This document shows positions 30,761-48,825 of a stretch of DNA of 64,000 nucleotides, piece by piece (the stretch's first letter is position 1; each line of letters begins with the position of its first letter). The stretch is taken from positions 1,745,444-1,809,443 of the forward strand of contig NC_020812.1 of assembly GCF_000348745.1 (NCBI RefSeq), given 5' to 3'. This stretch comes from Micavibrio aeruginosavorus EPB. GTDB lineage: Bacteria; Pseudomonadota; Alphaproteobacteria; Micavibrionales; Micavibrionaceae. The notes beneath the pieces are model-generated. The model worked only from the letters and a program-made list of their open reading frames with translations, did no database searches and was not told where the DNA came from. The position numbers and the translations under genes are program-made.

Positions 30761-30888
30761 GGGCCTGCCTTAAACTCCGGGATAAGATTATGGATATTGA
30801 TGACAAGACGGTCAAAAACCGCTAAATCTTGGGACGACAGGATACCTTATTTTTCAACGATTGTGCAGAGCCAACAGGACATCATCGC

Positions 30889-32217: not shown

Positions 32218-32218
32218 T

Positions 32219-33383: not shown

Positions 33384-33611
33384 ATGAGTAAAGAAAATAA
33401 TCATACGCCGCAGAATGCGGACCTCTTCGCCGGCCTGCGCGTCCTGCGTGATATTGGATTGCGCCTGACACCTGAACAACCGACAACCTATATGTGCGAT
33501 GCTGGCATGGCCGTCAGCGATCTGGACCCTGATACCGTCCGTCGCGTTTATTACGCCATGTTGCAAGCCGCTGCCCGCGCACCGTTGTGCGGGGAAGCCA
33601 GCCTGCATTAA
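33384..33611 (+). CDS. Small hypothetical protein beside the phage module
   Basis: A 75-residue protein (MSKENNHTPQNADLFAGLRVL), soluble, with two Cys (TYMCDAG, PLCGEA) and a helical C-terminus rich in Ala/Arg. A GGAG element sits about 10 bases before the ATG. It converges with the holin gene, ending three bases from its stop codon. No family recognised; it marks the right-hand limit of host DNA beside the phage cluster. Confidence 0.55.
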   Translation: MSKENNHTPQNADLFAGLRVLRDIGLRLTPEQPTTYMCDAGMAVSDLDPDTVRRVYYAMLQAAARAPLCGEASLH

Positions 33612-33613
33612 TA

Positions 33614-34189
33614 TTATTCATTCACCTTAAAATTCTGTCGCGTCTGTACAGAAGGTGCAGGCGCGACAGAATTTTTAACACTCGGCTTAACGCCCTGTGA
33701 CGGCGTTATTCTCTTTTCCTCGCTGCGCTTGTACACATAGATCCCTAGAACCGATAGCCCCACCATCCAGATGGTGCCCAGCGATTCCATGGATTGCAGG
33801 ACAATATCCGCCTGCGCCGTTTCAAAGACAATCACATAAGCCAAGGCCAGCATCTGCGCCGCCCATGTCAGCGCCATCAAATACCCGAATGTGGGCCGCA
33901 TGCGCCGGACATAGGGATCGCTGGAGGCTACTTCGGCCCGAAGAGATTCATTCACCTGCTGATACGCCGCCACGTTTTCCTGCGCCGCGACCTCGGCCAT
34001 TTTCTCGGCATGGCGATTGGCTTCGGCCATTTGTTCGGGCGTGATCTGCCCCATGCTGAGGGCGTCACTCACCTGCCCCAGCGATTTTGACGCCACCTGT
34101 GCCGCCGGATGTTTGATGGTGCCCAGAGCCTCGGACACGATGCTGGCCAGGACGGGCAGTCCCATTTGCAAAATGACGGGTGCGACCAT
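33614..34189 (-). CDS. Holin of the GTA three-helix type
   Basis: A 191-residue protein. Residues 1-95 are Ala/Gln-rich and amphipathic. Next comes the SSDPYVRRMRPTFGYLMALTWAAQM block, then two further membrane helices, and YVYKRSEEKR. This order matches PF11351 (holin of 3TMs for gene-transfer release), the family named after the gene transfer agent holin, though phages also carry it. It should open the inner membrane for the endolysin encoded just upstream. The C-terminal 30 residues are a disordered tail. Confidence 0.82.
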   Translation of the reverse strand: MVAPVILQMGLPVLASIVSEALGTIKHPAAQVASKSLGQVSDALSMGQITPEQMAEANRHAEKMAEVAAQENVAAYQQVNESLRAEVASSDPYVRRMRPTFGYLMALTWAAQMLALAYVIVFETAQADIVLQSMESLGTIWMVGLSVLGIYVYKRSEEKRITPSQGVKPSVKNSVAPAPSVQTRQNFKVNE

Positions 34190-34206
34190 GATATCTATCC
34201 CTTACA

Positions 34207-34683
34207 TCACACGATAAAAAATATGGCGGCCAATGACCGCTCCGCCAATGGTTTTTCGCCCCGTGTCCATGGCGGCGTAATGCCCGCGGCATGATAATGG
34301 GTGGCCCCGTTCGTCGGATCATCCAGAACCCCGGCCACCGCCCGCCGCGCAATGCGGACCGCCGTGGCAAAATGGATGTCGGATTCCGTTACGCCCATCA
34401 ATTTGACCCGGTTGGGATCATTGTCGTTCCAGCAACTGAATTGATAGGGTTTCTGACACACGGCAATAATACTGTTCCCCCACCAAAATTTTCCACCATG
34501 GGCCTCCGCCACTTTCACACGGTTTATGATCACGGCAGCCACGGCCTGCATACCGGCGCTGCCTTCGCCTCGGGCTTCCCCCCATAGGGTGCGGGCCAGA
34601 ATATCCACCGCCGTATCTTCATCAATACTGCGCGGTGTTGTTTTTGGTGTTTTACTGTCTTTGGGTTTTAAAAATCGAACCAT
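34207..34683 (-). CDS. Cell-wall hydrolase (SleB/Hydrolase_2 family), probable endolysin
   Basis: A 158-residue protein. The domain begins at about residue 27 (ILARTLWGEARGEGSAGMQAV) with the Glu expected to be catalytic, then IINRVKV, KPYQFSCWND and THYHAAGITPPW. This is PF07486, a lytic transglycosylase or amidase-like family used as phage and GTA endolysins. No signal peptide is visible, so holin-dependent export is likely. It lies 17 bases upstream of the holin gene. Confidence 0.85.
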   Translation of the reverse strand: MVRFLKPKDSKTPKTTPRSIDEDTAVDILARTLWGEARGEGSAGMQAVAAVIINRVKVAEAHGGKFWWGNSIIAVCQKPYQFSCWNDNDPNRVKLMGVTESDIHFATAVRIARRAVAGVLDDPTNGATHYHAAGITPPWTRGEKPLAERSLAAIFFIV

Positions 34684-34684
34684 T

Positions 34685-35008
34685 TTATCGTTCCTTCCGC
34701 GCGTTCAGCGCCTCTGTTTTCAATGCGGTGGCATCCAGTTTCGATTCGATGCGCAATAAATGCCCCACCAGGCGGGATTCAAGCTCTCGCATCTCCGCCA
34801 CGGATGCGTATGTCTTTGCGACTTCCAGCTTGAATGCCGCCAACCCTTCGCGCATTTGGCTGTGGCGCGTGTCAATCAGATCGCGCAAATGCCGCTCGGC
34901 GTTTTCTGACTCATTGCGGATATGCCAGATCAGCCAGAACATTCCGCCCAAAACGGGAATCTGGATAACGGTGACCCACCAATTCATATCGAATGCAAAA
35001 TGATCCAT
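34685..35008 (-). CDS. Small membrane protein with coiled coil, possible i-spanin
   Basis: A 107-residue protein with one N-terminal transmembrane helix (WVTVIQIPVLGGMFWLIWHI) and then about 75 residues of charged coiled coil (ENAERHLRDLIDTRHSQMREG onward). This is the shape of an inner-membrane spanin such as T7 gp18.5, and the gene stands where T7 has 18.5, between small and large terminase and the lysis genes. No nested outer-membrane lipoprotein partner was found, so the spanin label is tentative. Confidence 0.55.
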   Translation of the reverse strand: MDHFAFDMNWWVTVIQIPVLGGMFWLIWHIRNESENAERHLRDLIDTRHSQMREGLAAFKLEVAKTYASVAEMRELESRLVGHLLRIESKLDATALKTEALNARKER

Positions 35009-35013
35009 GCCCT

Positions 35014-36495
35014 TTAAACCTCAAATTCCGTGCGGGCTTCGTGTGTGATGGCGTCCCCGCGCCATGTCGGCCCACCCGATACAGCGACCAACCGTTGCAG
35101 GCGGACCGGTTGCAATGACAACGCCCCCGCCACGGCGTCCAGGCCATCATCCGCCCCGTTATCCCGCGTGGGCGTCCAATCCTGCATCTCGGTTAAAAAT
35201 GGCGTTTTCCACACATCGCCATGCACGCGCAACAGGCGCGCCGCCATGATGGTTTCAAACGATTCCAGAATGCGGATATTTTTGGGCCGCGTGCTGGAAT
35301 GTTCAACCACCGCGCACGGCACGCGCCCCTTGGCCAGTTCCCGTCGCAAAATCGCAGGCAGGAAACGACCGATCCCGTTAATTTCAATGGTGACCGCCGG
35401 AACATGAAACCGCTTCACGGCATCAACCACGGCGCGGGATTGTGCGGTGGCTTCATCTTCTGTCGCCGCATCGCAATTCATGTACAACACATGGTGTAAA
35501 TAAAGATTGCCATCCGTATCCGTAAACACGATGGCCAGAACGGACCGATCCCCGCCGCTGCGCCCAAACGCCGGGTCCCAGTACGCCGCGCACGAAACCA
35601 TGCGGGCCGTGCCGATATGCAATTGCCGCAATTCCGGCGAAAAAACGGCCTCATCCCCATAGCGGACCAGCCGCGCCGGGTCCAAACGCCCTTCGGCAAT
35701 ATTGACGGGCTCCAGCATCATTTGGCTGCGGAAACGGTTTTCACCCGTGCTGGCGCGCATGCGGGCAATATCCTGCACGCTGTACCGTTCCGGCCATGCG
35801 CTGTTCCCATCGCGATCCAAAACGGGGATTTTCAAGCGGCGAAATCCGTCCAAAAACGGGCGTACTTCACCAATCTCGCTGCGTGCCTTGTCCGCGTAGA
35901 TCGTGAACCAGCTATGCGGTGTGCCGACATACAGCATCGTACCGCCGGGGGTCAGGATAAAATCCATCTCCGCCAGACGGTCGCGCAAATTGCGGCGTTT
36001 GTCCGCCGTGTCGCATGTATTGGGCACCTCGACATCATCGCAGATGATCACATCGGCCCGGCTGCCCGTGGCGTTGGCGGTAATACCCGCCGCGACCATG
36101 GACGGATCGCGCAATTCCATCGCGCGATTAACCGTGAACCGGTCCGCGCCCCATTGGTCCGCGTTTTTCGGTTTCAAATTTTGCGTCAGTGGGTGGCGTT
36201 CGATAATTCGGCGTACATTGCGGACCATGCGCCGTGCCAACGACGTTTCCGCCGCCACCACCAAAATCCGCAAATCCGGATTGGTGTACAGCAACCACGC
36301 CGCAAACAGGCCCACCAAGGTACTTTTGCCGCACGACCGAAAAGCCATTAATAACAACCGCTTATCACCTGCCCGCCACGCCGATTCCAGCCATGTGGCC
36401 ATGAACAGATGCACCGATGGCGTGGCCAGCCCCTGGCGCTGGTTCCACAACACAACGAACAGACGAAAGGCCATGGGATTGGTTTTTTGAATCAT
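35014..36495 (-). CDS. Phage terminase large subunit
   Basis: A 493-residue packaging motor. The ATPase half has a Walker A-like MAFRSCGKSTLVGLF (residues about 45-60), an RILVVAAET segment and Walker B VIICDDVEVP, followed by a coupling motif GTMLYVGTPHS. The nuclease half contains AAYWDPAFGRSGGDRSVLAIVF with an acidic residue at the expected first metal site, and DDGLDAVAGAL near the C-terminus. It cuts and pumps DNA into procapsids. Its ATG overlaps the upstream small-terminase-like gene (ATGA). It appears intact, with no frameshift. Confidence 0.92.
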   Translation of the reverse strand: MIQKTNPMAFRLFVVLWNQRQGLATPSVHLFMATWLESAWRAGDKRLLLMAFRSCGKSTLVGLFAAWLLYTNPDLRILVVAAETSLARRMVRNVRRIIERHPLTQNLKPKNADQWGADRFTVNRAMELRDPSMVAAGITANATGSRADVIICDDVEVPNTCDTADKRRNLRDRLAEMDFILTPGGTMLYVGTPHSWFTIYADKARSEIGEVRPFLDGFRRLKIPVLDRDGNSAWPERYSVQDIARMRASTGENRFRSQMMLEPVNIAEGRLDPARLVRYGDEAVFSPELRQLHIGTARMVSCAAYWDPAFGRSGGDRSVLAIVFTDTDGNLYLHHVLYMNCDAATEDEATAQSRAVVDAVKRFHVPAVTIEINGIGRFLPAILRRELAKGRVPCAVVEHSSTRPKNIRILESFETIMAARLLRVHGDVWKTPFLTEMQDWTPTRDNGADDGLDAVAGALSLQPVRLQRLVAVSGGPTWRGDAITHEARTEFEV

Positions 36496-36818
36496 TCCCC
36501 ATCCCCCTTTTCATCATCGTCCTCACCAAATTTTTCATGATAATCGGCCAGTTCGCTTTCCGCATTTTTGACCATGGCGGCCAGATCATCATGACCATCA
36601 TCCGCACTCGGCAAATCCGCCCACCGCGCCAGCTTGATCAACAGGTCGATATGCGCAATCGCGACCTTGCACGCATTATGATATTCCTTGAACGCCTTGA
36701 TATCCGTCGGCACATTTTCGCCGGAAAACGCGTGATAGGAATTGAGCGCCCGCGCCAGCGCATCGGGTAAAAAAATGGCGACACGCTCGCGCGCATCGCC
36801 TGTCATGTCATTCGTCAT
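36492..36818 (-). CDS. Putative terminase small subunit
   Basis: A 108-residue, acidic, helical protein (GDARERVAIFLPDALARALN to an acidic tail DDDEKGDGE). It lies directly upstream of and overlaps the large terminase gene, the place and size of T7 gp18 (89 residues). I see no clear helix-turn-helix, so DNA-recognition ability cannot be judged. Position is the main support. Confidence 0.6.
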   Translation of the reverse strand: MTNDMTGDARERVAIFLPDALARALNSYHAFSGENVPTDIKAFKEYHNACKVAIAHIDLLIKLARWADLPSADDGHDDLAAMVKNAESELADYHEKFGEDDDEKGDGE

Positions 36819-36842
36819 TTTTCTTACGCTTTCCCTAAGGTC

Positions 36843-38870
36843 TTAGGTGAATTTTGACACGATATACCATTGCGACCCATTCGACGTGACTGTGATCGCG
36901 TTATATTGCCCGGATAAAGGTTGCGTGTATTGATCCGGCCCGGATCCGCCCTGTTCGCTGACCATCACTGCATTGGCGGACCCATCGACCTTTTTAATGG
37001 TCACGGTGCGCCCCACCGCCTTGGCCGCGTTTGCGGGGGGCAAACGCGCGGTCAACACCCCGCCATAGCTGGACAACAGATAGACATCCACCGCCATATC
37101 AATGTCATACGTCCCCGACCCGTCATAATACCGGGTGTTTCCCGCCATGCGGTTCGACGAAATAATCGACCAGGCCGCGCCATTGGAAATCATTTCCGCG
37201 TAATCATACCGACCACCCAGTTGCAATGTCGTGCCATCCGGCCCATTGCCGTCATCTTCGCCGATGGTGACAATGTTGGATGTGTCATCCAGTTTTTTCA
37301 CCACCATGACCACCCCCGGCGCATCACCCGCATTGGGCAAATCCACACGAATGGCACCGCTGGTCGCGTTGACCAGATGGACGGAATGCGACAAATCCAA
37401 CTGCGTCGTGCCCGGCGTGTCGATAAATTCCGTATCATGGCGCAATAATGTGGCCTTTAGATCCGTGACACTGGTTTTGCGCAGGCGGTTTTTATCCGGC
37501 CACCCGGCATTCACCGCGTCATAATTTCCACCGGATAAATCATAAATCGCCGCCCCATCACTCTGCGCCGATAGATTGATAATGGCGGTTTCTTCCGATC
37601 CTGCGTCAATCTGCACGTTTGGCACGCCATTATTCGATTCCGTGAACAGGTTGACCAGCAGGGTCTTGTTGCTGCCCGACCCCATGCGCACACACGCCGC
37701 CGCAGTGCCCTTCACATTGGCTTCGCAATCGACAAAGCTGTTATTAAACGACCCGTGCTCAACATAAATCCCGCCCCCGGTAATATCCGCCCCCAGCGAA
37801 TAGACGCGACAGGATTGGAATCGGTTGGCATTCGGCGTATCCCCCGCGCCTGATAAGGTCAGGTGTATGCCATGTGTGGCCATTTGCGCCACCAGAACAC
37901 GAGTAAAATTGTTCCAGTAACAGGGTTTATTGGTGTCACTGCCCCCATCCAGTTGCAGACCAATGTCGGACAGCCAGATGGTCACATCCGCCACGGCATT
38001 TTGAACGCACGGCCCATCCACACCGATTAAACGTAACCCGATGCTTCCCCCTTCAATCCGCAAATGCTGGATATTGGCATACCCAGCGGGACATTCCACG
38101 GCGACAAAGCTATTATTGATGGCCTGCATGACCGATTTTTGTCCCGCGCCGATCAGGCTTTTGCGATTTTTCACCTGAACGGTATTGCTGATCAAATATG
38201 TCCCCGACGGCACAAACACATAATCATGTGCCGCCAGCGCGTTTTGAAAGGCCAATGTGTCATCATTCAAACCATCGCCCACCGCACCAAAATCCTTCAC
38301 CGACACCAGATCGCCCAGCTTGTCTGTGCTGGTCCGTGTTTCTGCCCCCGTGCCCGTTGCGGTAAAATCGGGCGCGGCCATTGATCCGTCCAGCGACACC
38401 GCAATCGGGTCACCATCCGCGTTAAACCCCAAAGCCCGATTGGCCCGCTGCGCGCGGGATGGCAACGTGATATCCCCCGGTGTTTCGTGGTCGCCATAGC
38501 GCAACATTTGCCCCTGCATCCGGTCCACCTGTTGCAAACCGGCCATCAACATGTCCAGCTCTGTATTGATGGCCCGGGCGGAAAAATCGCCGCCTTCGAT
38601 AAAATCGGTCAGGCGTTCCAACGGCAGGCGGCGTTCCAGTGTCACAACAACACCACTGGCCGGGGCCGTATCAAACACCACCGTTCCACCATCCGTATTG
38701 CCCGCGCCATTGACGGTGAAGCCATAGGCCTGTTCCGCCCCGTTCAGCGACACCACCATGTCTTCGGATGCAAACAGGGGGAAGTCATAGGTGAACGTAT
38801 CCTGTACGCCGTCACCAAGACTGCGAACAATTGGAGCAATCGCGGGAATTCTAATGTGATCGGAGGGCAT
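36843..38870 (-). CDS. Tail spike: T7-fibre-type adaptor plus pectate-lyase-like beta helix
   Basis: A 675-residue protein. Residues 1-125 match the T7 tail-fibre N-terminal domain (DGVQDTFTYDFPLFASEDMVV, LERRLPLERLTDF, INTELDMLMAGLQQVDRM), which docks on the tail. Residues 180-470 begin with VSVKDFGAVGDGLNDDTLAFQ and form a pectate-lyase-type right-handed beta helix, as in polysaccharide-binding or cutting spikes. The C-terminus has two copies of a repeat of about 65 residues (KKLDDTSNIVTIGEDDGNGP and KKVDGSANAVMVSEQGGSGP). ATG 38870 follows an AGGACG ribosome binding site. Confidence 0.88.
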   Translation of the reverse strand: MPSDHIRIPAIAPIVRSLGDGVQDTFTYDFPLFASEDMVVSLNGAEQAYGFTVNGAGNTDGGTVVFDTAPASGVVVTLERRLPLERLTDFIEGGDFSARAINTELDMLMAGLQQVDRMQGQMLRYGDHETPGDITLPSRAQRANRALGFNADGDPIAVSLDGSMAAPDFTATGTGAETRTSTDKLGDLVSVKDFGAVGDGLNDDTLAFQNALAAHDYVFVPSGTYLISNTVQVKNRKSLIGAGQKSVMQAINNSFVAVECPAGYANIQHLRIEGGSIGLRLIGVDGPCVQNAVADVTIWLSDIGLQLDGGSDTNKPCYWNNFTRVLVAQMATHGIHLTLSGAGDTPNANRFQSCRVYSLGADITGGGIYVEHGSFNNSFVDCEANVKGTAAACVRMGSGSNKTLLVNLFTESNNGVPNVQIDAGSEETAIINLSAQSDGAAIYDLSGGNYDAVNAGWPDKNRLRKTSVTDLKATLLRHDTEFIDTPGTTQLDLSHSVHLVNATSGAIRVDLPNAGDAPGVVMVVKKLDDTSNIVTIGEDDGNGPDGTTLQLGGRYDYAEMISNGAAWSIISSNRMAGNTRYYDGSGTYDIDMAVDVYLLSSYGGVLTARLPPANAAKAVGRTVTIKKVDGSANAVMVSEQGGSGPDQYTQPLSGQYNAITVTSNGSQWYIVSKFT

Positions 38871-38899
38871 AGTTCGTCCTTTCTCAAAAATTTGGCACA

Positions 38900-38929
38900 A
38901 AAAAACCCGCCACAACCGGCGGGTTTTTT
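38900..38929 (-). terminator. Terminator between rlpA and the tail spike gene
   Basis: AAAAAACCCGCC (38900-38911) pairs with GGCGGGTTTTTT (38918-38929) around a six-base loop. It works as an intrinsic terminator on the minus strand just after rlpA and 30 bases before the tail spike start, so it would stop upstream phage transcription from reaching the spike and terminase genes unless read through. Confidence 0.85.
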
Positions 38930-38947
38930 AAAATCGTTTTTAATGGC

Positions 38948-39454
38948 TTAGGCGTTGGTCGCCGGCTTCTGCCCCGGAACAACGGGTTGCGTATTTTCGC
39001 ACATCACGGTAATGGCAACGTTGCCAAGACCATCATGATCCATATCCAGCGCCTTTGCGGCGGCCAGGGACAGATCAATCACGCGTTTGCCCACATACGG
39101 GCCACGGTCATTGATGCGAACAATAACGGTTTCACCATTATTTTTGTTGGTCACTTTGACCATTGTATCCATCGGTAACGTGCGATGGGCGGCGGTCAAC
39201 TCATTCATGTTGTAAATTTCGCCACTGGACGTTTTACGGCCATGGAACCCAGGACCATACCAGGATGCAACGCCGTTCTGTGCGGTACCAACCTGAATTT
39301 CAGGACGGCAGAAGCCAGGGGCGTTTTCGGATTTCTGGGCCAGAACATCACCGGCAGCCAGCATACCCAGCATCAGAAAACAAATCGGCAAAACGATTGC
39401 AAAACGTTTTTGTACGCAGATTGTTTTCACAGTTTCTAACAGTCGATAAATCAT
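38948..39454 (-). CDS. RlpA-like septal lytic transglycosylase embedded in the phage module
   Basis: A 168-residue protein with a signal peptide or anchor (AIVLPICFLMLGMLAAGDVLA) and an RlpA double-psi beta-barrel: NGVASWYGPGFHGRKTSSGE, LTAAHRTLP and VRINDRGPYVGKRVIDLS. Against P. aeruginosa RlpA the catalytic Glu (E79) and His (H90) are kept, while the middle Asp is Asn82. There is no SPOR domain, so septum targeting through denuded glycan is not expected. It has its own terminator and sits exactly where T7 has genes 15 and 16, whose products eject DNA and degrade peptidoglycan. Confidence 0.85.
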   Translation of the reverse strand: MIYRLLETVKTICVQKRFAIVLPICFLMLGMLAAGDVLAQKSENAPGFCRPEIQVGTAQNGVASWYGPGFHGRKTSSGEIYNMNELTAAHRTLPMDTMVKVTNKNNGETVIVRINDRGPYVGKRVIDLSLAAAKALDMDHDGLGNVAITVMCENTQPVVPGQKPATNA

Positions 39455-39620
39455 TACTCCGTGCTCGCTGTTGTTAACGATGGCGGTGTTATAGATGATT
39501 TATCTCAAATGCCGCAAGTTAACCCGTCAAAAGCATGGTATTCCAAAGCGTTAGCATGCTTCGAAAAGTGTTAATTTCCGGGCTTTTTTGAATATTAAAC
39601 CCCTATCCACACCCAAAAGG

Positions 39621-40142
39621 TTACAACAACATCGTGTCCAGTTTTTGCCGTTCCTGCAGCTGCGTGCGCTGTAAAACGTTGATGCGGTTGCGGTCGGCAA
39701 TATCCAGATCAATCGCCTGATTGCGCAAGCCATCAAGCTTCTCACGCGTTTGCCGCTCCTGATCACTCTCTTCAAACATACCGAGAAGAACGGCTTCGCC
39801 CGATCCATCCACCGCGGACAATCCCGATGAACCGTATTGCACTTTCTGCCGTGCCATGGCGCGTTTCAATGCGGCGCGCCGTGTCGTTTCTGCGCTTTGC
39901 GCATCGGCAGAAATTTTTTGCCGCTCCAGCCCGGCCTGCTCTTCGGCTTTTTGCAGGCCTGCATTCTGGGCCTCGATCAACTGGCGCATGGCCAGTTCCT
40001 GTTCCCGGCGCAGCGCGTCTTTCTGATCGGAATCGCCCAGCAATGTTTTGGCGGCGTTATAGCCGGAGTAAATTGAACTGATGCTGCCGGCCATGTTGCC
40101 GAACTGGCCCAGAACCTTAACGGCGGAGGAAAGCGTTCCCAT
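39621..40142 (-). CDS. Internal virion protein, T7 gp14-like
   Basis: A 173-residue protein. A small-residue-rich N-terminus (AVKVLGQFGNMAGSISSIYSGYNAA) is followed by a long charged coiled coil (LRREQELAMRQLIEAQNAGL) and the AKVQYGSSGLSAVDGSG-like block (here RQKVQYGSSGLSAVDGSGEA), typical of podovirus gp14-type internal core proteins that form the outer-membrane channel during DNA ejection. It abuts the tail tubular B gene. Partner gp15/gp16 genes are absent. Confidence 0.75.
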   Translation of the reverse strand: MGTLSSAVKVLGQFGNMAGSISSIYSGYNAAKTLLGDSDQKDALRREQELAMRQLIEAQNAGLQKAEEQAGLERQKISADAQSAETTRRAALKRAMARQKVQYGSSGLSAVDGSGEAVLLGMFEESDQERQTREKLDGLRNQAIDLDIADRNRINVLQRTQLQERQKLDTMLL

Positions 40143-42043: not shown

Positions 42044-42612
42044 GAATTCCTCACATCGATCAGGCTGAAATCTTCAATGCGGTTGGGGGAGTCCTGTTGT
42101 GCGTCAATCTGGCGCGCGCGCTGGAATTCTCCGTCGGCCAGACGGAACATCGCCTCGGCCCGGGACGTATTTTCGGTGACCGGGATGCAAAATTCAGCGC
42201 TCAGCCGTGCGATCAGCGCCGCGTCAAAGTACGGTGGAAATTCTTCTTCCTCTGGCCGGAAGATATAGGTCAGCAGGACCGAATCCGAATTGGCCTGTAA
42301 CCGTCCGCGGGCAATGCGGTAATTCAAACCCCGCCCGCGCCCCGCCGTGCCGGCGGATAAAGCGCGCAGATAATCGGACGGCAAATGGAACGCATGGGCG
42401 TAATCCGCCGCCGGCGCGGTCGCATTGGGATTCAACGCCACCTGCCCCGTGGCAAAGCTCCAGCCATAGGCGGAGAGCAGCGCATCGCGCACAGGCCCAA
42501 ACAAGGCCCCGGCAATATCGGATTCAGCGGTGCCGTCCAGAAACGATGTAATGGGTGCCGCGCCCAGGCGGATCAGCGCCCGGCTGCACAGGGCAATATC
42601 GGAAAGAGCCAT
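42040..42612 (-). CDS. Tail tubular protein A (T7 gp11-like gatekeeper)
   Basis: A 190-residue protein, close to T7 gp11 (196). It starts MALSDIALCSRALIRLGAAPI, the usual N-terminus of the family, with LSAYGWSFATGQVAL and AFHLPSDYLRAL blocks. It forms the adaptor ring between portal and nozzle. ATG 42612 is chosen because it restores the family start; six upstream codons are possible. It overlaps the next gene. Confidence 0.88.
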   Translation of the reverse strand: MALSDIALCSRALIRLGAAPITSFLDGTAESDIAGALFGPVRDALLSAYGWSFATGQVALNPNATAPAADYAHAFHLPSDYLRALSAGTAGRGRGLNYRIARGRLQANSDSVLLTYIFRPEEEEFPPYFDAALIARLSAEFCIPVTENTSRAEAMFRLADGEFQRARQIDAQQDSPNRIEDFSLIDVRNS

Positions 42613-42667
42613 TTGAAAGCCTGCCTTCAATCATAAAATGTGGAATGGTTAAAAAATCGGGGCCGTA

Positions 42668-42706
42668 CCCCGCCGGATTGAATGACACACAAACAATCCG
42701 GCGGGG
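42668..42706 (-). terminator. Strong hairpin between the 81-aa gene and tail tubular A
   Basis: A perfect 12-bp stem (42668-42679 with 42695-42706; CCCCGCCGGATT and its inverse) around a 15-base loop. There is no clear T-run on the minus strand, so it may be an attenuator or mRNA-processing element rather than a full terminator. It divides the capsid and tail parts of the module. Confidence 0.6.
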
Positions 42707-42829
42707 GGCCCGATACCGATGGGCATGGACGTCGCCCGTCACACGCATGAACCGACCAGAGGAACCAAAATGGTCGATTACCATGCGGATCCGCGCAAGC
42801 CCGCCATCACGGCAACCGGCAATACAGCC

Positions 42830-43075
42830 TTAGCTGTACAGCGCGATCGTCACGGCGCCGCCGCTGTTCCCGGTCACGATATAAAATTTCGTCGCCGGGG
42901 TGCCATCGGTATCAAGATTGGCAATGATCAGATCATTCACGCGCATCATGTCCGATGCCGTGTTGAAATAACCACCGCCGGTCACAACGCCAGATGCATC
43001 CACGGTGGTGTAGTGCCACAACGTGAAATTATTGGCATAGGCCAGAACGCTTAAGTCGCTTGCTTTGAAAGCCAT
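42830..43075 (-). CDS. Small phage structural protein
   Basis: An 81-residue beta-rich protein (SDLSVLAYANNFTLWHYTTVD, MMRVNDLIIANL, FYIVTGNSGGAVTIAL). Small proteins of this shape follow the major capsid gene in BPP-1-like and other podoviruses, where they may decorate the head. It lies 37 bases downstream of the capsid gene. Family assignment is by position and look only. Confidence 0.6.
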   Translation of the reverse strand: MAFKASDLSVLAYANNFTLWHYTTVDASGVVTGGGYFNTASDMMRVNDLIIANLDTDGTPATKFYIVTGNSGGAVTIALYS

Positions 43076-43111
43076 TGTTTTTGTCCTTCTTCTTTAAGGT
43101 TGCACAGACGA

Positions 43112-43939
43112 TTACGGAGTTTCGTCACATTCGATGACAACAACGCCGTTGCCATCGATCAGGGATGCACCCTGGCTCATCATGTTGTTGACGAAATGCG
43201 CTGCACGGTCGCCGTGCCACGTAATATCCGTCTGAACATCCGAACCCGACGCATGGCCGATGGCCGTTTTGTGGAACCAGAAGCAGGACCGCACACCCGT
43301 GCCATCAATCGGCAGGCCGGAATGCGGAATAAACAACGTACCCAGGAAGCGTTTTGCCTGAATCCCACGGAACGGCAATTCATCCGGGCCGACATAATCG
43401 GCGCTGGTGAATTCGTCGGTGGCCAGCAATTCGCTCCATTGCTTGTAACCAACAATGGCATAACGCTCGCCATCATCCGGAACGTCGGCTTCGCCCAGCT
43501 GTTCAAAAGCCTCCAGAATTTTGGCAATCGACATGCCTGCACCCGCATCAGCCACCACGTTGGTGCTGGCCGTGGCCAGGGCGTTGATGATCAGCTCGTC
43601 CGTTTTGCGGCCCAGGGCATAGGCACCGGCATTGGCGATCACCTGACGTTCGTCGATGTTGGTTTTCAGTTCGTCCAGACGGTCGACCCAGTCACCGGCG
43701 TAATAATCCTGCAACGCGGTTTCCACCGTGGAATGGGACAGGTTCATCACCGGAACCATGCCGTGGGTGGATTTGGTCGACGCCACGCCCTTGCCGACTT
43801 TTTGGAAGACGGTGCTGGAGCCCTGGACGTTGGAGATGGTGCGCACAGTGTTCCGCAGTTTGGAGCCCATACGCTGGTAGGATTCATGCACTTCGCGTTC
43901 GAATTGCTTGATAAAGGCTTGGTCAATGGATGTGGCCAT
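43112..43939 (-). CDS. Major capsid protein, podovirus type
   Basis: A 275-residue protein. Its helical N-terminus (DQAFIKQFEREVHESYQRMG) and the VGKGVASTKSTHGMVPVMNL, YYAGDWVDRLDELKTNIDERQVI and ERYAIVGYKQWSELL blocks match the capsid family of BPP-1-like and T7-like podoviruses, a HK97-fold group. ATG 43939 has a strong GAGGAA ribosome binding site, whereas the open frame further upstream is not capsid-like. It would package DNA in an icosahedral head. The gene follows a 500-base gap and so probably has its own promoter. Confidence 0.82.
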   Translation of the reverse strand: MATSIDQAFIKQFEREVHESYQRMGSKLRNTVRTISNVQGSSTVFQKVGKGVASTKSTHGMVPVMNLSHSTVETALQDYYAGDWVDRLDELKTNIDERQVIANAGAYALGRKTDELIINALATASTNVVADAGAGMSIAKILEAFEQLGEADVPDDGERYAIVGYKQWSELLATDEFTSADYVGPDELPFRGIQAKRFLGTLFIPHSGLPIDGTGVRSCFWFHKTAIGHASGSDVQTDITWHGDRAAHFVNNMMSQGASLIDGNGVVVIECDETP

Positions 43940-44200
43940 GACATTTCCTCGTTCTGTATGTTGTTGATGAAAAACACGTTGTGAAAACCGGGGGCGGTTG
44001 TCGTTCGTCACGGCCACGAAAAGAAAACCCGGCAAAAACACCCTGAAAAGCATGGCAACGGGCGGCGCGAAAACCGCGACCGTTGTCCGTCACCACGAAG
44101 TTTCAAAGGGAGATCAAAACCGTCATACCCCGCAACCCCGGCCCCACTCTAAGAGCGAAACCAAACCGCGGACGCAATGAGGGCGTCGACAGGAGTTAAT

Positions 44201-44218
44201 TTAGGATTAAATTCCTAA
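44201..44218. promoter_or_regulatory. TTAGGA-N6-TCCTAA palindrome upstream of pilZ
   Basis: An 18-bp palindrome, TTAGGA-TTAAAT-TCCTAA, in the AT-rich 43940-44438 gap between the capsid and PilZ genes. The core TAGGA-N6-TCCTA recurs at 51120-51135 over the promoter upstream of the pyrE-region operon. Two copies with identical arms and spacing suggest a shared regulator. The rest of the gap holds no gene that I can support. Confidence 0.45.
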
Positions 44219-44438
44219 GTTGTCAATTCTTATTTTTAAAACTGGCAATTTATTTTTTGAAAATTATATAAGGGTGTGAAAGACTGAGGTTGGGCATAAA
44301 AAACAAATAATCCTTCCCGCCCGTCTTTTTCTTGCATGCGGCAATAGAGGTCTGATATTAACCGCGTTACGGAAATAACTTCCGTACAAAAGGGCTGCGT
44401 TCCTGTGTGTTTTCACGCGCCCGATGGAGAGTTAGAGC

Positions 44439-44822
44439 ATGCTGAATATCCTTCTCGCTGGCCTGCGCGCCAATGGCAGCAATGATGCCGCCGAAACACG
44501 CCGCCGCTACCCCCGCCGTCACGTCGACCGTTGTGTCGCCAGCGTGAACGGGAGCATTTTCCCTATCGAAAACTGGAGCTTTGGCGGATTGCAGATCATG
44601 GCCGATGAACGCCTGTTCGGAATTGGGCAGAGCGTCGACATGGTGTTGAAATTCAAACTGCGCAATACAATCGTTGATATTGATGTGCGCGGCACCGTCA
44701 TCCGCAAGACCGCCGATCATGTTGGCGTTGAATTCGAACCGCTGAGCCACACGATCCGCCGCGCGTTCCAACAGGTGATTGACGATCACGTTGCGGCCGA
44801 ATTCGCCAATTCACAGATTTAA
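44439..44822 (+). CDS. PilZ-domain (c-di-GMP receptor) protein inside the phage module
   Basis: A 127-residue protein read against the phage genes. The PilZ signature is complete: an RRRYPRR box (R22 to R26) and NWSFGG (N45, S47, G50), followed by the barrel strands LRNTIVDIDVRGTVIRK and DHVGVEFEPL. PilZ proteins bind cyclic di-GMP and change motility, biofilm or surface traits. It has its own upstream region and a terminator, so it is an independent transcription unit lying between the scaffold and capsid genes. Confidence 0.85.
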   Translation: MLNILLAGLRANGSNDAAETRRRYPRRHVDRCVASVNGSIFPIENWSFGGLQIMADERLFGIGQSVDMVLKFKLRNTIVDIDVRGTVIRKTADHVGVEFEPLSHTIRRAFQQVIDDHVAAEFANSQI

Positions 44823-44840
44823 TTGGATCACAGAACAATA

Positions 44841-44870
44841 AAAACCCCTCCGCCGAAACGGAGGGGTTTT
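44841..44870. terminator. Bidirectional terminator between pilZ and the scaffold gene
   Basis: AAAACCCCTCCG (44841-44852) pairs with CGGAGGGGTTTT (44859-44870) around CCGAAA. With A-run and T-run flanks it can end both pilZ (plus) and the portal-scaffold unit (minus, whose last stop is at 44875). It would therefore cut the phage module into separate transcripts. Confidence 0.88.
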
Positions 44871-44874
44871 TGTT

Positions 44875-45651
44875 TTACTCAGCGCCACCATAAATGCGCT
44901 GGAACCCTTGGGTGACCTGCGCAATCGTGGATGGATCGCGGTCGCGCCAGTATTTCGGGTCACGCATCATGGACCGCAGGGCGTTTTCATCCGGAGCCAG
45001 ACCGGATGCATCCTTGCCCGCCGGGTGATCCAACGCGGATTCCCCACCCTGCATCATGCGATACAGCGCCATGACGCCTTCAAAGCTGGAGGACAGGTTG
45101 GTCAGAACATCCGCTGGCAGGTTCTTGCGGCCATAGGCCAACAACTGGCGCGAAATCTCGGCCCAGCGTTCCGGCCCGCCAAAGGCGGAGATCAAACGGT
45201 CAACCTCGCGGTCGGCCTTGAACTCCTCGGCAATCTCCAGAATCATCGGCACCATTTTTTCGGCGGCCAGATCGTAAACCATCTGCACCTGATCCGGGGT
45301 GAAACCACGTTCGTGCATACGCTTGTTCAAATCCGCATCCGCCGTAAACAGGCCGTGATCGCAACGGACATTATAGGCATCCGGCGTATCCGGCACGCCC
45401 AGCGCACGATGGATACGGCTGCGGTCTTCCCCCTCGCCCGGCAGAGCGACCATGGTGGAGAGTTTTTTCTCCAGCGCCAGATAGGATTGCACCAGCGCCT
45501 CCACCCGCACAGAACGCTTTTCGGCATCCCAGAATTTATCGGGCAGGCCCGCCGGACGCGCCGGATCAGTAGCCGAAGCATTCATGGCGCCCGCATTATC
45601 CGCGGTCATTTTGGATTCATCTTCCGGGGTCAGTAAATTATCAACACTCAT
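44875..45651 (-). CDS. Putative capsid scaffold protein
   Basis: A 258-residue acidic, helical protein. It has a central GLPDKFWDAEKRSVRVEALVQSYLALEKKL block, the usual mark of podovirus scaffold-type proteins (LPDKF.d...g.v..e.l..sY..LE), then ALGVPDTPDAYNV. The C-terminus is Ala/Arg-rich. Its position between portal and capsid equals T7 gene 9. It should guide procapsid assembly and then leave. Confidence 0.75.
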   Translation of the reverse strand: MSVDNLLTPEDESKMTADNAGAMNASATDPARPAGLPDKFWDAEKRSVRVEALVQSYLALEKKLSTMVALPGEGEDRSRIHRALGVPDTPDAYNVRCDHGLFTADADLNKRMHERGFTPDQVQMVYDLAAEKMVPMILEIAEEFKADREVDRLISAFGGPERWAEISRQLLAYGRKNLPADVLTNLSSSFEGVMALYRMMQGGESALDHPAGKDASGLAPDENALRSMMRDPKYWRDRDPSTIAQVTQGFQRIYGGAE

Positions 45652-45683
45652 CGTCTTTCTCCTTCTTTCATTAAAAATTTCAG

Positions 45684-45965
45684 TTATCGACTGGAACGGC
45701 CACGATCGACCATCCGCATGACCGAGGCGACCAGCGCCCTCTGCCCCTCGGCATAGCGCAGATGCGTGTCGCTGATATCCGGGCCATGGGCGCGGGCGAA
45801 GGTCATCACCTGCAAATGGGCCAGAACCTTTTTCCCGTCATCGCTGGAAAAACAGCGGGCGAACAGGCGGTCAATATCCTGCTGCGTCATCGCCGGGGTG
45901 TCATCACCCTTAGAAAACAGATGCGGCGGCACGGGCAGATGCTTCGTCATTGGCAAGAAGTTCAT
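45684..45965 (-). CDS. Bbp19-like small phage protein
   Basis: A 93-residue protein whose core (DIDRLFARCFSSDDGKKVLAHLQ then LRYAEGQRALVASVMRMVDRG) resembles the Bbp19-like family first named in Bordetella phage BPP-1, encoded near the portal in many podoviruses. Role unknown. Its start overlaps the 3' end of the portal gene by 56 bases; a start five codons in is possible. Confidence 0.65.
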   Translation of the reverse strand: MNFLPMTKHLPVPPHLFSKGDDTPAMTQQDIDRLFARCFSSDDGKKVLAHLQVMTFARAHGPDISDTHLRYAEGQRALVASVMRMVDRGRSSR

Positions 45966-47517
45966 CGTTCAAAATCTCCATATCAAGAGTGGGTTGGGCT
46001 TGCGACGCGGGTTGGACATCGTTCAGGATCAAATCAGACGGCACGCCCAGCGCATCGCCCAGGAACCGCGCGGCCTGTGGCAGGTTGACGGCGGCCAGGG
46101 CCTCCGGCCCCATGGCCTGAACCGCCTGCAGCCAGCTGAGCGTATTCTGGACGTTGCGTTGTCCCTGCGCCCGGGCCAGCGGTGAGCGGTAATCCAGCGT
46201 GACCAGACGGCCATCAATGGCGATATCCGGCACCTCGCCCCGGCGGCGCAGGATGGCGAAGGCCCGCATGATCAGCGGCGTCATCAATTCTGTCTGCAAC
46301 CGGCCATAGGTCGCACCGAGCAACAGCGCCATTTCCCCCGATCGTTCCAAAACTTCCGTCGCGGTCATGCGGCGATCGGAAATCTGTCCCAACCGATCGG
46401 TCAGCAGGGCGTGGCGAATGCGCGCGCGCAAATCATCCAGAACCAGCTGCGAAATATCGAACCGCCCCGGCATTTCCAGCGGCTTCAGCCCCTGCGACCC
46501 GACCGCCTTTGGAATAATCACACCGGGTTTCAGTTCGATGTTGGCGGGGTTGAGAACGCCGTCATCATCCGCCTGCCAGATCCCGGTTACGGCGATGGAG
46601 GCGTTTTTCAAAATCAGCTCCACCACCTTGTTCGCAGTCTTAATATCGGGCAGCGATTTCATCACCGGTGACCGGCCATAAATTTCCCCCGGTGATTTCA
46701 GCCAGCGGAAGGCAATCATCGGCGTATCGGCCATGCGTGATTGTTTCAACACTGTGGCATTACTGCCCGCGCTTTGTAATGTGGCCTGCAACACATATCC
46801 GCCACGCCCATCGGGCAGGATGGATTCCAGAACCGGGAACCGGGCCTGGGCATCGCGCTCACCGCTGCGGATCACATCGGCGGGCAAATCCGCCAGCGGA
46901 TAGCGTTCGCGCAATTGCGCCAACGTCATGTTCACTTCGCGGTACAGGCCGTTCAGGTACCCATCGGCCCCCTCCTCCAGCACCAGTTGATGCAAAGGCA
47001 CCGCCGTAAAACGGAAGGCGGAGAACGATCCCGGCGGCGCTTCCTCAACGAACAAACACGCCGTTCCACCGACGATCAAATCGAGGAAGCATTGATGGAT
47101 TTCAACGATGAAGTTGGACCGATCCAGATGCGCCTGAATCGTGCGCGCCGCCTTTTCCAGCGCCGGGGCCAGACGTTCGGCATCACTCGCGCTGAGATCC
47201 GGCCCGGGTTTCAAACCGAACCATTGCGTCCAGGGCGGGGTCAGGTTACCCAGCAGGCTGGCCGCCAGTTGTTCGACACAATCCAGCGCCGTGGCGTCAT
47301 ACAGACGATCCATGCGCGTATCGCCGGGGCGAATGCCGCCACCAAACCCCTGACGTTGCGGCAAAGCGTAATCATACGCATCCTGCCACAACGATTCCCA
47401 CTGGGACCGGCGCGATTTTGCCGCGTTAAACCGTTGCATCAACGCATCCCGCGCCGTTGCATCCATCACCGTAGTCGGTTTCGCGGTATCCAGAACAAAA
47501 TTTGATACCATGATCAT
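45910..47517 (-). CDS. Portal (head-to-tail connector) protein, T7 gp8-like
   Basis: A 535-residue protein, the length of T7 gp8 (536). It shows the family start SKRSQWESLW-like (here SRRSQWESLWQDAYDYALPQRQGF), then RLYDATALDCVEQLAASLLGNLTPP, a long KTANKVVELILKNASIAVTG block and RMTATEVLERSGEMALLLGATYGRLQTEL. It forms the dodecameric gate for DNA packaging and ejection. Intact, with no frameshift. It overlaps the upstream 87-aa gene by four bases. Confidence 0.92.
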   Translation of the reverse strand: MIMVSNFVLDTAKPTTVMDATARDALMQRFNAAKSRRSQWESLWQDAYDYALPQRQGFGGGIRPGDTRMDRLYDATALDCVEQLAASLLGNLTPPWTQWFGLKPGPDLSASDAERLAPALEKAARTIQAHLDRSNFIVEIHQCFLDLIVGGTACLFVEEAPPGSFSAFRFTAVPLHQLVLEEGADGYLNGLYREVNMTLAQLRERYPLADLPADVIRSGERDAQARFPVLESILPDGRGGYVLQATLQSAGSNATVLKQSRMADTPMIAFRWLKSPGEIYGRSPVMKSLPDIKTANKVVELILKNASIAVTGIWQADDDGVLNPANIELKPGVIIPKAVGSQGLKPLEMPGRFDISQLVLDDLRARIRHALLTDRLGQISDRRMTATEVLERSGEMALLLGATYGRLQTELMTPLIMRAFAILRRRGEVPDIAIDGRLVTLDYRSPLARAQGQRNVQNTLSWLQAVQAMGPEALAAVNLPQAARFLGDALGVPSDLILNDVQPASQAQPTLDMEILNDELLANDEASARAAASVF

Positions 47518-47777
47518 TCCCCCAGCAAGGTTTTGCGTTGCGGGGTGTCCCCTTGGGACAATAGCCCACGGAACCCCGTGGTAATCGTGCTGAGCCGTCC
47601 GCGCCCGCGCTCCAGCAGGCTGGCCGCACGTTGGGCGGACCGTGTTTCATCATCGGTCGGCGTGGTCGTTCCGGTATCCGTCCCCGTTCCCGTAGATGGT
47701 GTGGTGGTCGGGGTCGGCGTATAGACCGGGACATATTGGACAGACGGCGTCTTCGGACGCGAAGCAAAGCTTCCCAT
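47514..47777 (-). CDS. Thr/Pro-rich small phage protein
   Basis: An 87-residue protein starting MGSFASRPKTPSVQYVPVYTP with a Thr/Pro/Gly-rich low-complexity stretch (TTTPSTGTGTDTGTTTP) and a basic C-terminus (RGRGRLSTITTGFRGLL). Small proteins of this type often lie next to podovirus portals. ATG 47777 has a strong AAGGAG ribosome binding site. Function unknown. Confidence 0.7.
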   Translation of the reverse strand: MGSFASRPKTPSVQYVPVYTPTPTTTPSTGTGTDTGTTTPTDDETRSAQRAASLLERGRGRLSTITTGFRGLLSQGDTPQRKTLLGE

Positions 47778-47813
47778 CGTGTTCTCCTTCGATAACAATG
47801 TTGGTTTAAAAAA

Positions 47814-48212
47814 TCAGGCGGCCGCGATATGGCGATACAATTGCCACGGCGTCATGATCCATCGATCATGCAGGCCGAGAATACGCTTCACCGCCTCGAC
47901 ACAGGTGAACGGCATCGGCGGCGCACAACGGCGCGGCGCTTGCCGTACCGTGGTCGGCACCACGCGTTGCCCCCGCCCCGCCAGCCATGCCGGCAAATCG
48001 AAATCGGCCGGAACGTGATGCACGGTGATTTCCGTTTTATTGGCCAGCGGATCACACGACAGCCAATGCCGCCCGTCATTCAGCAGAACGAAACAATGAC
48101 GGAACCCCGGACGCAGGAAGCGCAGCCACGGCAAATCCGTTTCCCCGGTGAACACCACCCACGCGTTTTGGCGGTTGGACGACGAATTGGAAAATTTGGA
48201 CATCATGCTCAT
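47814..48212 (-). CDS. Hypothetical protein with His...Cys pattern, possible permuted papain fold
   Basis: A 132-residue protein. RPGFRHCFVLLNDGRHW is followed after about 65 residues by PMPFTCVEAVKRILG. A His on a strand first and a Cys at the head of a helix later is the order seen in circularly permuted NlpC/P60 (LRAT/YaeF-like) enzymes. This is a pattern-based guess. ATG 48212 overlaps the upstream stop (ATGA), so the two genes are coupled. It lies upstream of the portal and may be a moron or an adsorption/lysis factor. Confidence 0.6.
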   Translation of the reverse strand: MSMMSKFSNSSSNRQNAWVVFTGETDLPWLRFLRPGFRHCFVLLNDGRHWLSCDPLANKTEITVHHVPADFDLPAWLAGRGQRVVPTTVRQAPRRCAPPMPFTCVEAVKRILGLHDRWIMTPWQLYRHIAAA

Positions 48213-48649
48213 TCTGCGGCCTCCTGTAATACATGCATGGGAACGACAACGGACCCGCCCCAAAACCGCACCATGTCGGCGCGCGGGCTTAAAATTCCCT
48301 TGTCGATAAACGGTTGTTCCATCACCGCCATGGCTTCGGTCCACAGGCGGTGGGCGCGCTGTTCCTGGGCGCGGCGCGGATCGGGCGGCAACATGCGCAG
48401 CCCGTAATGACGCAGGACCAGCATGTGATCCATGCTCAAATCCCGATTGCGGTGCAGGCGGTCCAGAACGCGCAGGACGTCAATCGGCTCGCACGGGCGG
48501 GCCACCAGCCCGGCCCCCTGCAGGGATTTGGCGCCATCAATGCGCGCCTGTTGCGCCTGTATGAACCAGAACCAGAGCGCGTCCATCGAATCGAAGGCCT
48601 GCGCCGCTGCAATCGTGACGGGGGTCGGGATATATCGGTCTCTCGCCAT
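48209..48649 (-). CDS. First gene of the phage module, unknown function
   Basis: A 146-residue soluble, helical protein starting MARDRYIPTPVTIAAAQAFDSMDALWFWFIQAQQARIDGA. It has an Arg-rich middle (DVLRVLDRLHRNRDLSMDHMLVLRHYG) and no membrane segment. ATG 48649 is supported by GGAG 11 bases upstream. It opens the minus-strand operon, 20 bases from the nearer GTTC-N7-GTTC box, and could be a head, packaging or regulatory protein. No family recognised. Confidence 0.6.
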   Translation of the reverse strand: MARDRYIPTPVTIAAAQAFDSMDALWFWFIQAQQARIDGAKSLQGAGLVARPCEPIDVLRVLDRLHRNRDLSMDHMLVLRHYGLRMLPPDPRRAQEQRAHRLWTEAMAVMEQPFIDKGILSPRADMVRFWGGSVVVPMHVLQEAAE

Positions 48650-48668: not shown

Positions 48669-48683
48669 GTTCGTATAATGTTC
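48669..48683. promoter_or_regulatory. Alphaproteobacterial LexA-type box 1
   Basis: GTTC-GTATAAT-GTTC, a perfect GTTC-N7-GTTC direct repeat, the known LexA (SOS) operator of Alphaproteobacteria. It lies 20 bases upstream of the first phage-module start codon, where a bound repressor would block transcription. Confidence 0.75.
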
Positions 48684-48712: not shown

Positions 48713-48727
48713 GTTCTCATTTTGTTC
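48713..48727. promoter_or_regulatory. Alphaproteobacterial LexA-type box 2
   Basis: GTTC-TCATTTT-GTTC, a second perfect GTTC-N7-GTTC repeat in the same 177-base divergent region, 64 bases upstream of the phage-module start and 99 bases before the regulator start. A lone GTTC half-site at 48774 lies in an AGGAA-AATG-TTCCT palindrome nearer the regulator. Confidence 0.75.
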
Positions 48728-48825
48728 TTTATGACGGAGAAGTTTCGCCCTGTCAAGCCCAAAATAGGAAAATGTTCCTTTCTTTTTTGGTTTACGGGCG
48801 AAAAATATGATGGGATTATTCTCCT

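What the first reader, a model, noticed from the sequence alone, without database searches (positions are those of the whole stretch)
33614..48649. A 15-kb T7-ordered podovirus virion module without replication or integration genes: candidate podovirus-type gene transfer agent
Seen: all on the minus strand and intact are portal (535 aa), Bbp19-like protein, scaffold, major capsid, tail tubular A, tail tubular B, gp14-like internal protein, T7-type tail spike, small and large terminase, a spanin-like protein, a Hydrolase_2 endolysin and a GTA-type 3TM holin. The order matches T7 genes 8 to 19. No integrase, excisionase, DNA or RNA polymerase, primase, early gene or att repeat was found, and flanks are host genes. 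Known: RcGTA and BaGTA are such reduced, intact, host-controlled modules of about 14-15 kb. Inference: the module is a domesticated agent rather than a live prophage. Alternative: a recently reduced prophage.
Basis: partly seen in the sequence, partly recalled or inferred. Interest (0 to 1): 0.88.

Follow-up and report, generated by a model that had tools for sequence, protein, structure and literature searches.

The report
Domesticated short-tailed phage particle module
A predatory bacterium and many of its relatives carry, as an inherited part of the chromosome, a kit for building short-tailed virus-like particles but no linked genes for copying or inserting a virus, which suggests that the cells use it to package and pass on their own DNA.

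Summary
The 15-kb module is real and is not a recent prophage. TerL matches occur in 92 of 143 related genomes and, at E<=1e-50, in 57 of 385 genomes of the class (my count). Gene order and flanks are widely conserved. A seven-protein module tree shares 20 of 32 splits with RpoB (2000 shuffles: mean 0.2, maximum 3). Virion genes are under strong purifying selection. Among the integrases listed for 36 genomes, none lies within 20 kb of TerL (list truncated). [quoted passage not shown] Best reading: an old podovirus-type gene transfer agent lineage. Packaging and transfer are untested. Against: in some IMG/VR isolates replication and integrase genes abut the capsid half, probably a second element's insertion.

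The parts
48826..49470 (+). Divergent regulator: Cro/C1 HTH with LexA/CI-like C-terminal half; in this copy the Ala-Gly site and the serine of the GDSM motif are lost
   Evidence: PF13443; phrog_4 transcriptional repressor; alignment; fusion test in relatives
48766..48779 (.). Operator AGGA-N6-TCCT, exact, at the regulator/c1 promoters
48713..48727 (.). LexA-type box GTTC-N7-GTTC
48669..48683 (.). second LexA-type box
48209..48649 (-). c1: first gene, 146 aa, helical; weak structural likeness to antiterminator Q21
   Evidence: 108 sources with a match; model pLDDT 81; VIA-align Z 6.1; no family
47814..48212 (-). orf176 (true length about 132 aa), unknown
   Evidence: start found; no family; conserved
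47514..47798 (-). orf94, unknown, before the portal
45910..47517 (-). Portal (head-tail connector)
   Evidence: phrog_332 1.2e-107
45684..45965 (-). Bbp19-like protein
   Evidence: PF25181 3.6e-15
44875..45651 (-). Scaffold, T7 capsid-assembly type
   Evidence: PF05396 1.6e-07
44840..44871 (-). Terminator-like hairpin after scaffold
   Evidence: 30 sites found in the region, shuffled mean 22.2, so weak as a class
44439..44822 (+). PilZ-domain gene nested antisense between scaffold and capsid
   Evidence: PF07238 1.5e-08; 38 of 39 loci with both neighbours
44198..44226 (-). Promoter-like site before the capsid gene, with an exact AGGA-N6-TCCT operator at 44203-44216
43112..44053 (-). Major capsid protein (start probably the internal MATSID)
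   Evidence: PF19821 8.2e-86; phrog_3437
42830..43075 (-). orf81, also matched in phage Hodr
   Evidence: phrog_18004
42040..42630 (-). Tail tubular A
   Evidence: phrog_394 3.9e-43
40142..42043 (-). Tail tubular B
   Evidence: phrog_376 2e-142
39621..40142 (-). Internal-protein position (gp14-like by place only)
   Evidence: no family; 56 of 61 loci
38948..39454 (-). DPBB/RlpA-like gene, local addition
   Evidence: PF03330 3.2e-26; 6 of 61 loci
36843..38915 (-). Tail spike with pectate-lyase-like domain
   Evidence: dN/dS 0.031 and last sixth most conserved
36492..36818 (-). Putative small terminase: three long helices, no N-terminal HTH in the model
   Evidence: phrog_31793; pLDDT 79
35014..36495 (-). 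Large terminase, T7 type
   Evidence: NF033889 424 bits
34685..35008 (-). Spanin-like protein (label unconfirmed)
   Evidence: phrog_29007
34207..34683 (-). Endolysin, Hydrolase_2
   Evidence: PF07486 5.1e-19
33614..34189 (-). Holin, GTA_holin_3TM
   Evidence: PF11351 37.2 bits, cut-off 24.8
27951..33121 (.). Host flank Icd, NhaA, EamA
   Evidence: EamA, NhaA or Icd past the lysis genes in 39 of 50 loci with at least 1.2 kb there
51394..52838 (+). Host flank: phosphoribosyltransferase and NAD kinase, near or (PRTase) fused with the regulator in relatives

Best explanation
The module is a domesticated podovirus: a vertically inherited, host-controlled virion-and-lysis unit that most likely works as a gene transfer agent. 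Proposed mechanism: a CI-type repressor sits on the same operator at two promoters, one before c1 and one before the capsid gene, and LexA adds a second lock at the first. DNA damage or another host cue opens the first promoter. c1, perhaps a Q21-like antiterminator, lets polymerase run past the hairpin after scaffold into the capsid operon. Heads form; a T7-type large terminase, with a small terminase that lacks a recognition domain, fills them with host chromosomal DNA. A conserved spike directs particles to close kin; holin, endolysin and the spanin-like protein lyse the producer. Shown: anatomy, synteny, co-descent, purifying selection, no listed integrase within 20 kb of TerL, conserved promoter motifs. 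Inferred: what binds the motifs, role of c1, packaging of host DNA, transfer.
For: Mostly one copy per genome in most relatives. Order and flanks conserved. 20 of 32 splits shared with RpoB. Median pairwise identity MCP 0.74, TTA 0.67, TTB 0.65, portal 0.63, spike 0.61, TerL 0.54, against RpoB 0.78 (its RpoB set still held two wrong-frame rows). dN/dS 0.017-0.082 for portal, scaffold, MCP, TTA, TTB, spike, TerS, TerL in G000-G002. Spike end conserved. No listed integrase within 20 kb of TerL in 36 genomes. Portal half about 87 kb from TerL on one contig in G010, and mid-contig on two contigs in G017. LexA-type boxes in 27 of 30 order regions; shared operator. PilZ inside in 38 of 39 loci; regulator fused to an enzyme in at least 11 sources. 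TerS model without N-terminal HTH, which PMC6854486 proposes as the GTA type (passages). 9 phage portals fall on one side of a branch, 127 other rows on the other.
Against: No packaged DNA, particle or transfer was seen. The TerL is T7 type, whose phage relatives cut concatemers (recalled), unlike the headful packaging described for CcGTA. A 15-kb module might fit a T7-sized head. LexA-type boxes in only 2 of 8 class regions, and no exact box before recA in the own genome. In isolate 2840619991 exonuclease, ssDNA-binding, helicase, methylase and integrase genes run up to the capsid half. 12 of 32 module splits are not in the RpoB tree, some with support 97-99. 51 of 143 relatives have no TerL match. 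G030 and G093 are misplaced in the TerL tree. TerS distances do not follow RpoB (263 of 999 permutations as high), portal only weakly (46 of 999). Q21 likeness is below the Z the tool trusts, and Foldseek found nothing (E>=2.5).
Confidence: 0.72

Rival explanations
1. A PBSX-like killing particle: domesticated heads that package host DNA but serve to kill competitors or prey, without productive transfer.
For: It would leave the same genomic signature. The host is an obligate predator by the title of PMC3189940.
Against: The spike end is its most conserved part, which suits one fixed receptor. The module also occurs across the class, well beyond Micavibrio relatives.
Confidence: 0.1
2. A live temperate podovirus lineage that repeatedly integrates at one site; its replication and integration genes lie elsewhere or were lost in the copies seen.
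For: A phage-type repressor, operators and intact virion genes. In IMG/VR isolate 2840619991 replication and integrase genes abut the capsid half; five of 80 TerL contigs are 33-57 kb and one portal contig is 61 kb.
Against: Co-descent with RpoB. In isolate 2846958647 the portal stops at residue 278 where unrelated DNA begins, while close relatives on 18-kb contigs are intact, so foreign insertions do occur. All 80 best portal contigs are at most 26 kb. No listed integrase within 20 kb in 36 genomes.
Confidence: 0.08
3. A domesticated particle with another role, for instance protein delivery, or an immunity or storage use that needs heads but not DNA transfer.
For: The function is untested; a PilZ gene and other host-type genes sit inside.
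Against: TerL is among the most constrained genes (dN/dS 0.017), so DNA packaging is probably used.
Confidence: 0.06
4. A decaying relic.
For: Remains or partial deletions in some genomes.
Against: Open frames and strong purifying selection in most copies.
Confidence: 0.02

Closest known systems
RcGTA-like gene transfer agents (RcGTA, CcGTA)
   Same: Virion cluster in Alphaproteobacteria without replication or integration genes, host co-descent, GTA_holin_3TM, a TerS without N-terminal HTH (PMC6854486, passages); CcGTA also has a repressor and antitermination (PMC11150451, passages).
   Different: Podovirus type: T7-type TerL, PF19821 capsid, connector-type portal, tail tubular proteins and spike. 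Regulator, c1 and operators are linked to the cluster.
FpGTA of Faecalibacterium (PMC12946183; section 9 and passages read)
   Same: Podovirus-like GTA; TerS without obvious DNA-binding domain; two loci about 125 kb apart in one strain.
   Different: Gram-positive host, 10.5 plus 5.5 kb operons, particles and packaged DNA demonstrated. Sequence relation to this module not tested.
BaGTA (Bartonella)
   Same: Inherited alphaproteobacterial GTA, about 14-kb structural cluster (PMC9662315, passages).
   Different: 29 genes over about 79 kb are needed, with a phage-derived replication origin nearby (same passages). No sequence comparison made here.
Pelagibacter podovirus EXVC031P Hodr
   Same: Portal, Bbp19, scaffold, MCP, orf81, TTA, TTB in the same order; MCP 50%, portal 35% identical.
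   Different: 34-kb phage genome with many other genes, including 783- and 1247-aa genes between the spike-matching gene and TTB; no match to this module's TerL profile.
PBSX-type defective phages (recalled)
   Same: Domesticated heads that package host DNA after DNA damage.
   Different: Other morphology and families; a killing role. Recalled only.

Membership tests
Gene transfer agent (general sense) | Virion genes derived from a tailed phage, enough for particles | tested here: met
Gene transfer agent (general sense) | Evolves in concert with the host | tested here: met
   20 of 32 splits shared with RpoB in 35 genomes; deep nodes conflict
Gene transfer agent (general sense) | No linked integration or replication genes | tested here: met
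   window and own genome; 36 genomes by listed matches (truncated). Exception to explain: IMG/VR isolate 2840619991
Gene transfer agent (general sense) | TerS without N-terminal DNA-binding domain | tested here: inconclusive
   The model has helices 6-31, 39-65, 76-99 and no HTH, but the protein is TerS by place only
Gene transfer agent (general sense) | Packages random host DNA, at best part of its own genes | not testable with these tools
   Split loci (G010, G017) argue against self-packaging there
Gene transfer agent (general sense) | Transfers DNA to recipient cells | not testable with these tools
   none
RcGTA-like (Rhodogtaviriformidae) | RcGTA-type capsid and portal families (types recalled) | tested here: not met
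   MCP is PF19821, portal phrog_332/449
FpGTA-type | Sequence homology with FpGTA proteins | not tested
   FpGTA sequences were not fetched
Intact T7-like prophage or phage | Polymerase, primase, early region, integrase | tested here: not met
   The module's reading frames leave no room for them; nearest integrase about 340 kb
Intact T7-like prophage or phage | Internal core proteins of gp15 and gp16 size | tested here: not met
   TTB is followed by 173-, 168- and 690-aa genes

The most novel reading that the evidence does not exclude
A class-wide podovirus-type gene transfer agent lineage in Alphaproteobacteria, of separate origin from RcGTA: a T7-type motor, a reduced ejection apparatus, and a linked switch made of a CI-type repressor (captured by a phosphoribosyltransferase in some genera), LexA boxes and a Q21-like antiterminator. 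It may account for so far unassigned particles with about 10 kb of random host DNA in Azospirillum lipoferum.
Probability: 0.5. Interest if true: 0.95.

Novelty: new variant of a known kind. Interest (0 to 1): 0.88.

Why it matters
GTAs with known genes are few, and those of Alphaproteobacteria go back to RcGTA-type and BaGTA-type ancestors. A further, podovirus-based lineage spread over some 33 family codes would mean that phages were tamed for DNA exchange more than once in one class and that the result lasted. It would give an obligate predator a route of gene exchange with kin, show a T7-type motor working on cellular DNA, and offer a linked, testable switch. It also warns that many short 'proviruses' in virus collections may be inherited cell genes.

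Tried and rejected
(1) CtrA control: an exact TTAA-N7-TTAA lies at the MCP promoter, but only 8 of 39 short regions have one (shuffled mean 1.0), and in the window it overlaps the repressor-type operator; dropped. (2) orf140 is the antisense frame of PilZ; orf113 has dN/dS 1.04; both dropped as genes. (3) An exact LexA-type box before recA: none; the genome has 71 boxes against 30 for the reversed pattern. (4) A first cut of promoter regions used bad coordinates and gave 9 regions; redone with motif anchors, 59 regions. (5) The first RpoB set had two wrong-frame rows (G036, G023), used and corrected; one search was not rerun. (6) Foldseek gave no useful hit for c1 or TerS; folds missing from VIA-align are no evidence. 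(7) Plasmid search found only distant portals, at most 31%; none for one L282 gene. (8) A one-sequence TerL scan of IMG/VR found nothing; the alignment was needed. (9) Unassigned frames: 100 of 163 in-module and 93 of 380 flank representatives were scanned, and only the first 25 of 62 and 25 of 188 families were shown, so these tables prove no absence. (10) Integrase distances were read by eye from listed matches; nearest G154 (about 22 kb) and G425 (about 26 kb). (11) Rows dropped: genes below length limits before alignment; genomes with fewer than 5 of 7 module proteins (35 kept of 42 with RpoB).
Full report
WHERE. The window lies in a single-contig genome of 2,458,610 bp. A congener, G002, has 2,481,983 bp, the size printed for Micavibrio aeruginosavorus ARL-13 (PMC3189940, passages). 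I recall 2,458,610 bp as strain EPB; no call shows it. NCBI taxonomy files Micavibrio under Bdellovibrionota, but the named TerL relatives are Micavibrio, other alphaproteobacterial, Rhodospirillales and Acetobacteraceae MAGs and 'Azospirillum sp. CAG:239'; I follow the genome grouping, which puts them in one class.

ANATOMY. Three names stay unproven: small terminase, gp14-like, spanin. c1 (48209-48649), orf176 and orf94 precede the portal. A divergent regulator (48826-49470 +) faces c1. A PilZ gene is nested on the opposite strand between scaffold and capsid. A terminator-like hairpin follows scaffold and a promoter-like site precedes the capsid gene (such sites are only mildly above shuffles), which suggests two transcription units. 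No genes of T7 gp15/gp16 size are present; phage Hodr has 783- and 1247-aa genes there.

DISTRIBUTION AND SYNTENY. At E<=0.001: TerL in 92 of 143 relatives and 73 of 105 good genomes, two only weakly (G065, G138); portal in 97 of 143, nine of them only distantly (35% identity or less); regulator in 98 of 143. Sixty fetched loci mostly show one order; many are cut by contig ends, and G007 and G035 have large deletions. EamA, NhaA or Icd follow the lysis genes in 39 of 50 loci with at least 1.2 kb there. Upstream, phosphoribosyltransferase and NAD kinase genes recur. In the class, 71 of 385 genomes match TerL at E<=0.001 and 57 at E<=1e-50, over 33 family codes (the last two counts are mine). 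Of 20 class genomes mapped over up to 40 kb, 11 keep regulator - orf176 - portal - MCP - TTB - TerL in order; G331 lacks a portal hit; G215 is cut by a contig end; in G166 portal and MCP are 12 kb apart; in G231, G425, G502, G177 and G343 the portal half is outside the stretch held; in G297, as in L041 and L045, the terminase and lysis block sits between orf176 and orf94. In G010 portal and TerL are about 87 kb apart on one contig; in G017 they lie mid-contig on two contigs. Six genomes without a good TerL keep remains beside the regulator.

DESCENT AND SELECTION. The seven-protein tree and RpoB share 20 of 32 splits in 35 genomes; 2000 label shuffles gave a mean of 0.2 and a maximum of 3. Twelve splits differ, mostly deep, some with high support. 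In the TerL tree class families f100, f104, f112 and f138 each form one group, f58 does not, and G030 and G093 are misplaced. Pairwise distances follow RpoB for most genes, weakly for portal (46 of 999 permutations as high), not for TerS (263 of 999) (with two faulty RpoB rows). dN/dS for G000-G002: TerL 0.017, portal 0.027, TTB and spike 0.031, MCP 0.081; the highest real module genes are regulator 0.178, DPBB 0.177 and endolysin 0.157; in five other pairs module genes reach at most 0.244 (TerS). The last sixth of the spike is its most conserved part (median identity 0.70); I would expect the opposite in phage spikes (recalled).

REGULATION. Of 39 regulator rows aligned, by eye 19 keep the serine of the LexA/CI motif (mostly with an AQAG site), 9 have lost it (among them the window and its congeners G001 and G002), 9 have another C-terminal half and 2 are cut. 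That other half is a phosphoribosyltransferase like the one next door: 11 fused frames among 202 sources scanned, E 1.3e-105 to 2.9e-80. GTTC-N7-GTTC boxes, the LexA consensus in Caulobacter (PMC12700426, one passage), lie in 27 of 30 order, 2 of 8 class and 15 of 21 IMG/VR regulator-c1 regions; shuffles mean 0.1 or less; other spacings occur in 0 or 1 region. AGGA-N6-TCCT with at most one mismatch lies in 30 of 30, 8 of 8 and 14 of 21 of these (shuffled means 1.6, 0.3, 0.9) and in 32 of 42 PilZ-MCP regions (4.6): one operator, two promoters. That the regulator binds it is inferred. c1's model (pLDDT 81) is nearest Q21 (Z 6.1, 84 residues, 3.2 A; next row 4.6), below the Z the tool trusts. Caulobacter's GTA also uses a repressor and antitermination (PMC11150451, passages).

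PHAGE OR NOT. The nearest phage genomes are distant: portal 35% and MCP 50% (Hodr), TerL at most 31%. A 5-kb unannotated fecal clone, MT838907, is closer (54% portal, 62% MCP) and groups with class genome G297. In the portal tree nine phages lie on one side of a branch and 127 rows on the other, with long branches. The own genome's nearest tyrosine integrase is about 340 kb off; in 36 genomes none of the listed ones is within 20 kb of TerL. IMG/VR: all 80 best portal contigs are at most 26 kb; by TerL five of 80 are 33-57 kb, and a second portal query found one of 61 kb. In 2840619991 (55.7 kb) exonuclease, ssDNA-binding, helicase, methylase and integrase genes run up to the capsid gene. In 2846958647 (34.4 kb) the portal stops at residue 278 where unrelated DNA begins, while close relatives are intact. 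Insertion of other elements into the module is the simplest reading, but the middle of these contigs was not seen.

KNOWN OR NEW. Searches with Micavibrio, Micavibrionales, Azospirillum, podovirus, prophage and gene transfer agent showed no description of this module in the open library, judged by listings and the passages read. FpGTA (2026) claims the first podovirus-like GTA, so the kind is known and the lineage appears new. A. lipoferum releases particles with random 10-kb host fragments, tentatively assigned by its authors to another prophage region (PMC3899980, section 2.8); a link to this module is only a lead.

VERDICT. Domesticated: about 0.9. GTA in function: 0.72.

Noticed in passing
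G194, G313, G483 (family code f75, about 0.9 Mb genomes): TerL lies in two open pieces about 3.4 kb apart, broken near residues 200-210 in all three, as if by an insertion at one place.
   Followed up: no
L068 and L069 (G068): One genome carries two module copies on two contigs, each with a regulator nearby and Icd downstream.
   Followed up: partly
L279-L318, also L076 and L096: Dihydroorotate dehydrogenase lies near the module in 9 of 20 class genomes and in G141 and G093, and a PyrE-like phosphoribosyltransferase near or fused to the regulator in Micavibrio relatives: pyrimidine-type genes recur at this site.
   Followed up: partly
cluster c4 (e.g. L049:495-1373): A peptidoglycan-binding gene recurs inside or beside the module in 22 loci, with other host-type insertions such as GGDEF, M50 and PadR.
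   Followed up: no
MT838907.1 (L320), human fecal record: A 5-kb clone named bacteriophage carries orf94 to TTB in the module's order and groups with class genome G297.
   Followed up: partly
window 33264-33608 (-): Open frame with dN/dS near 1 between the two strains; probably not a gene.
   Followed up: yes
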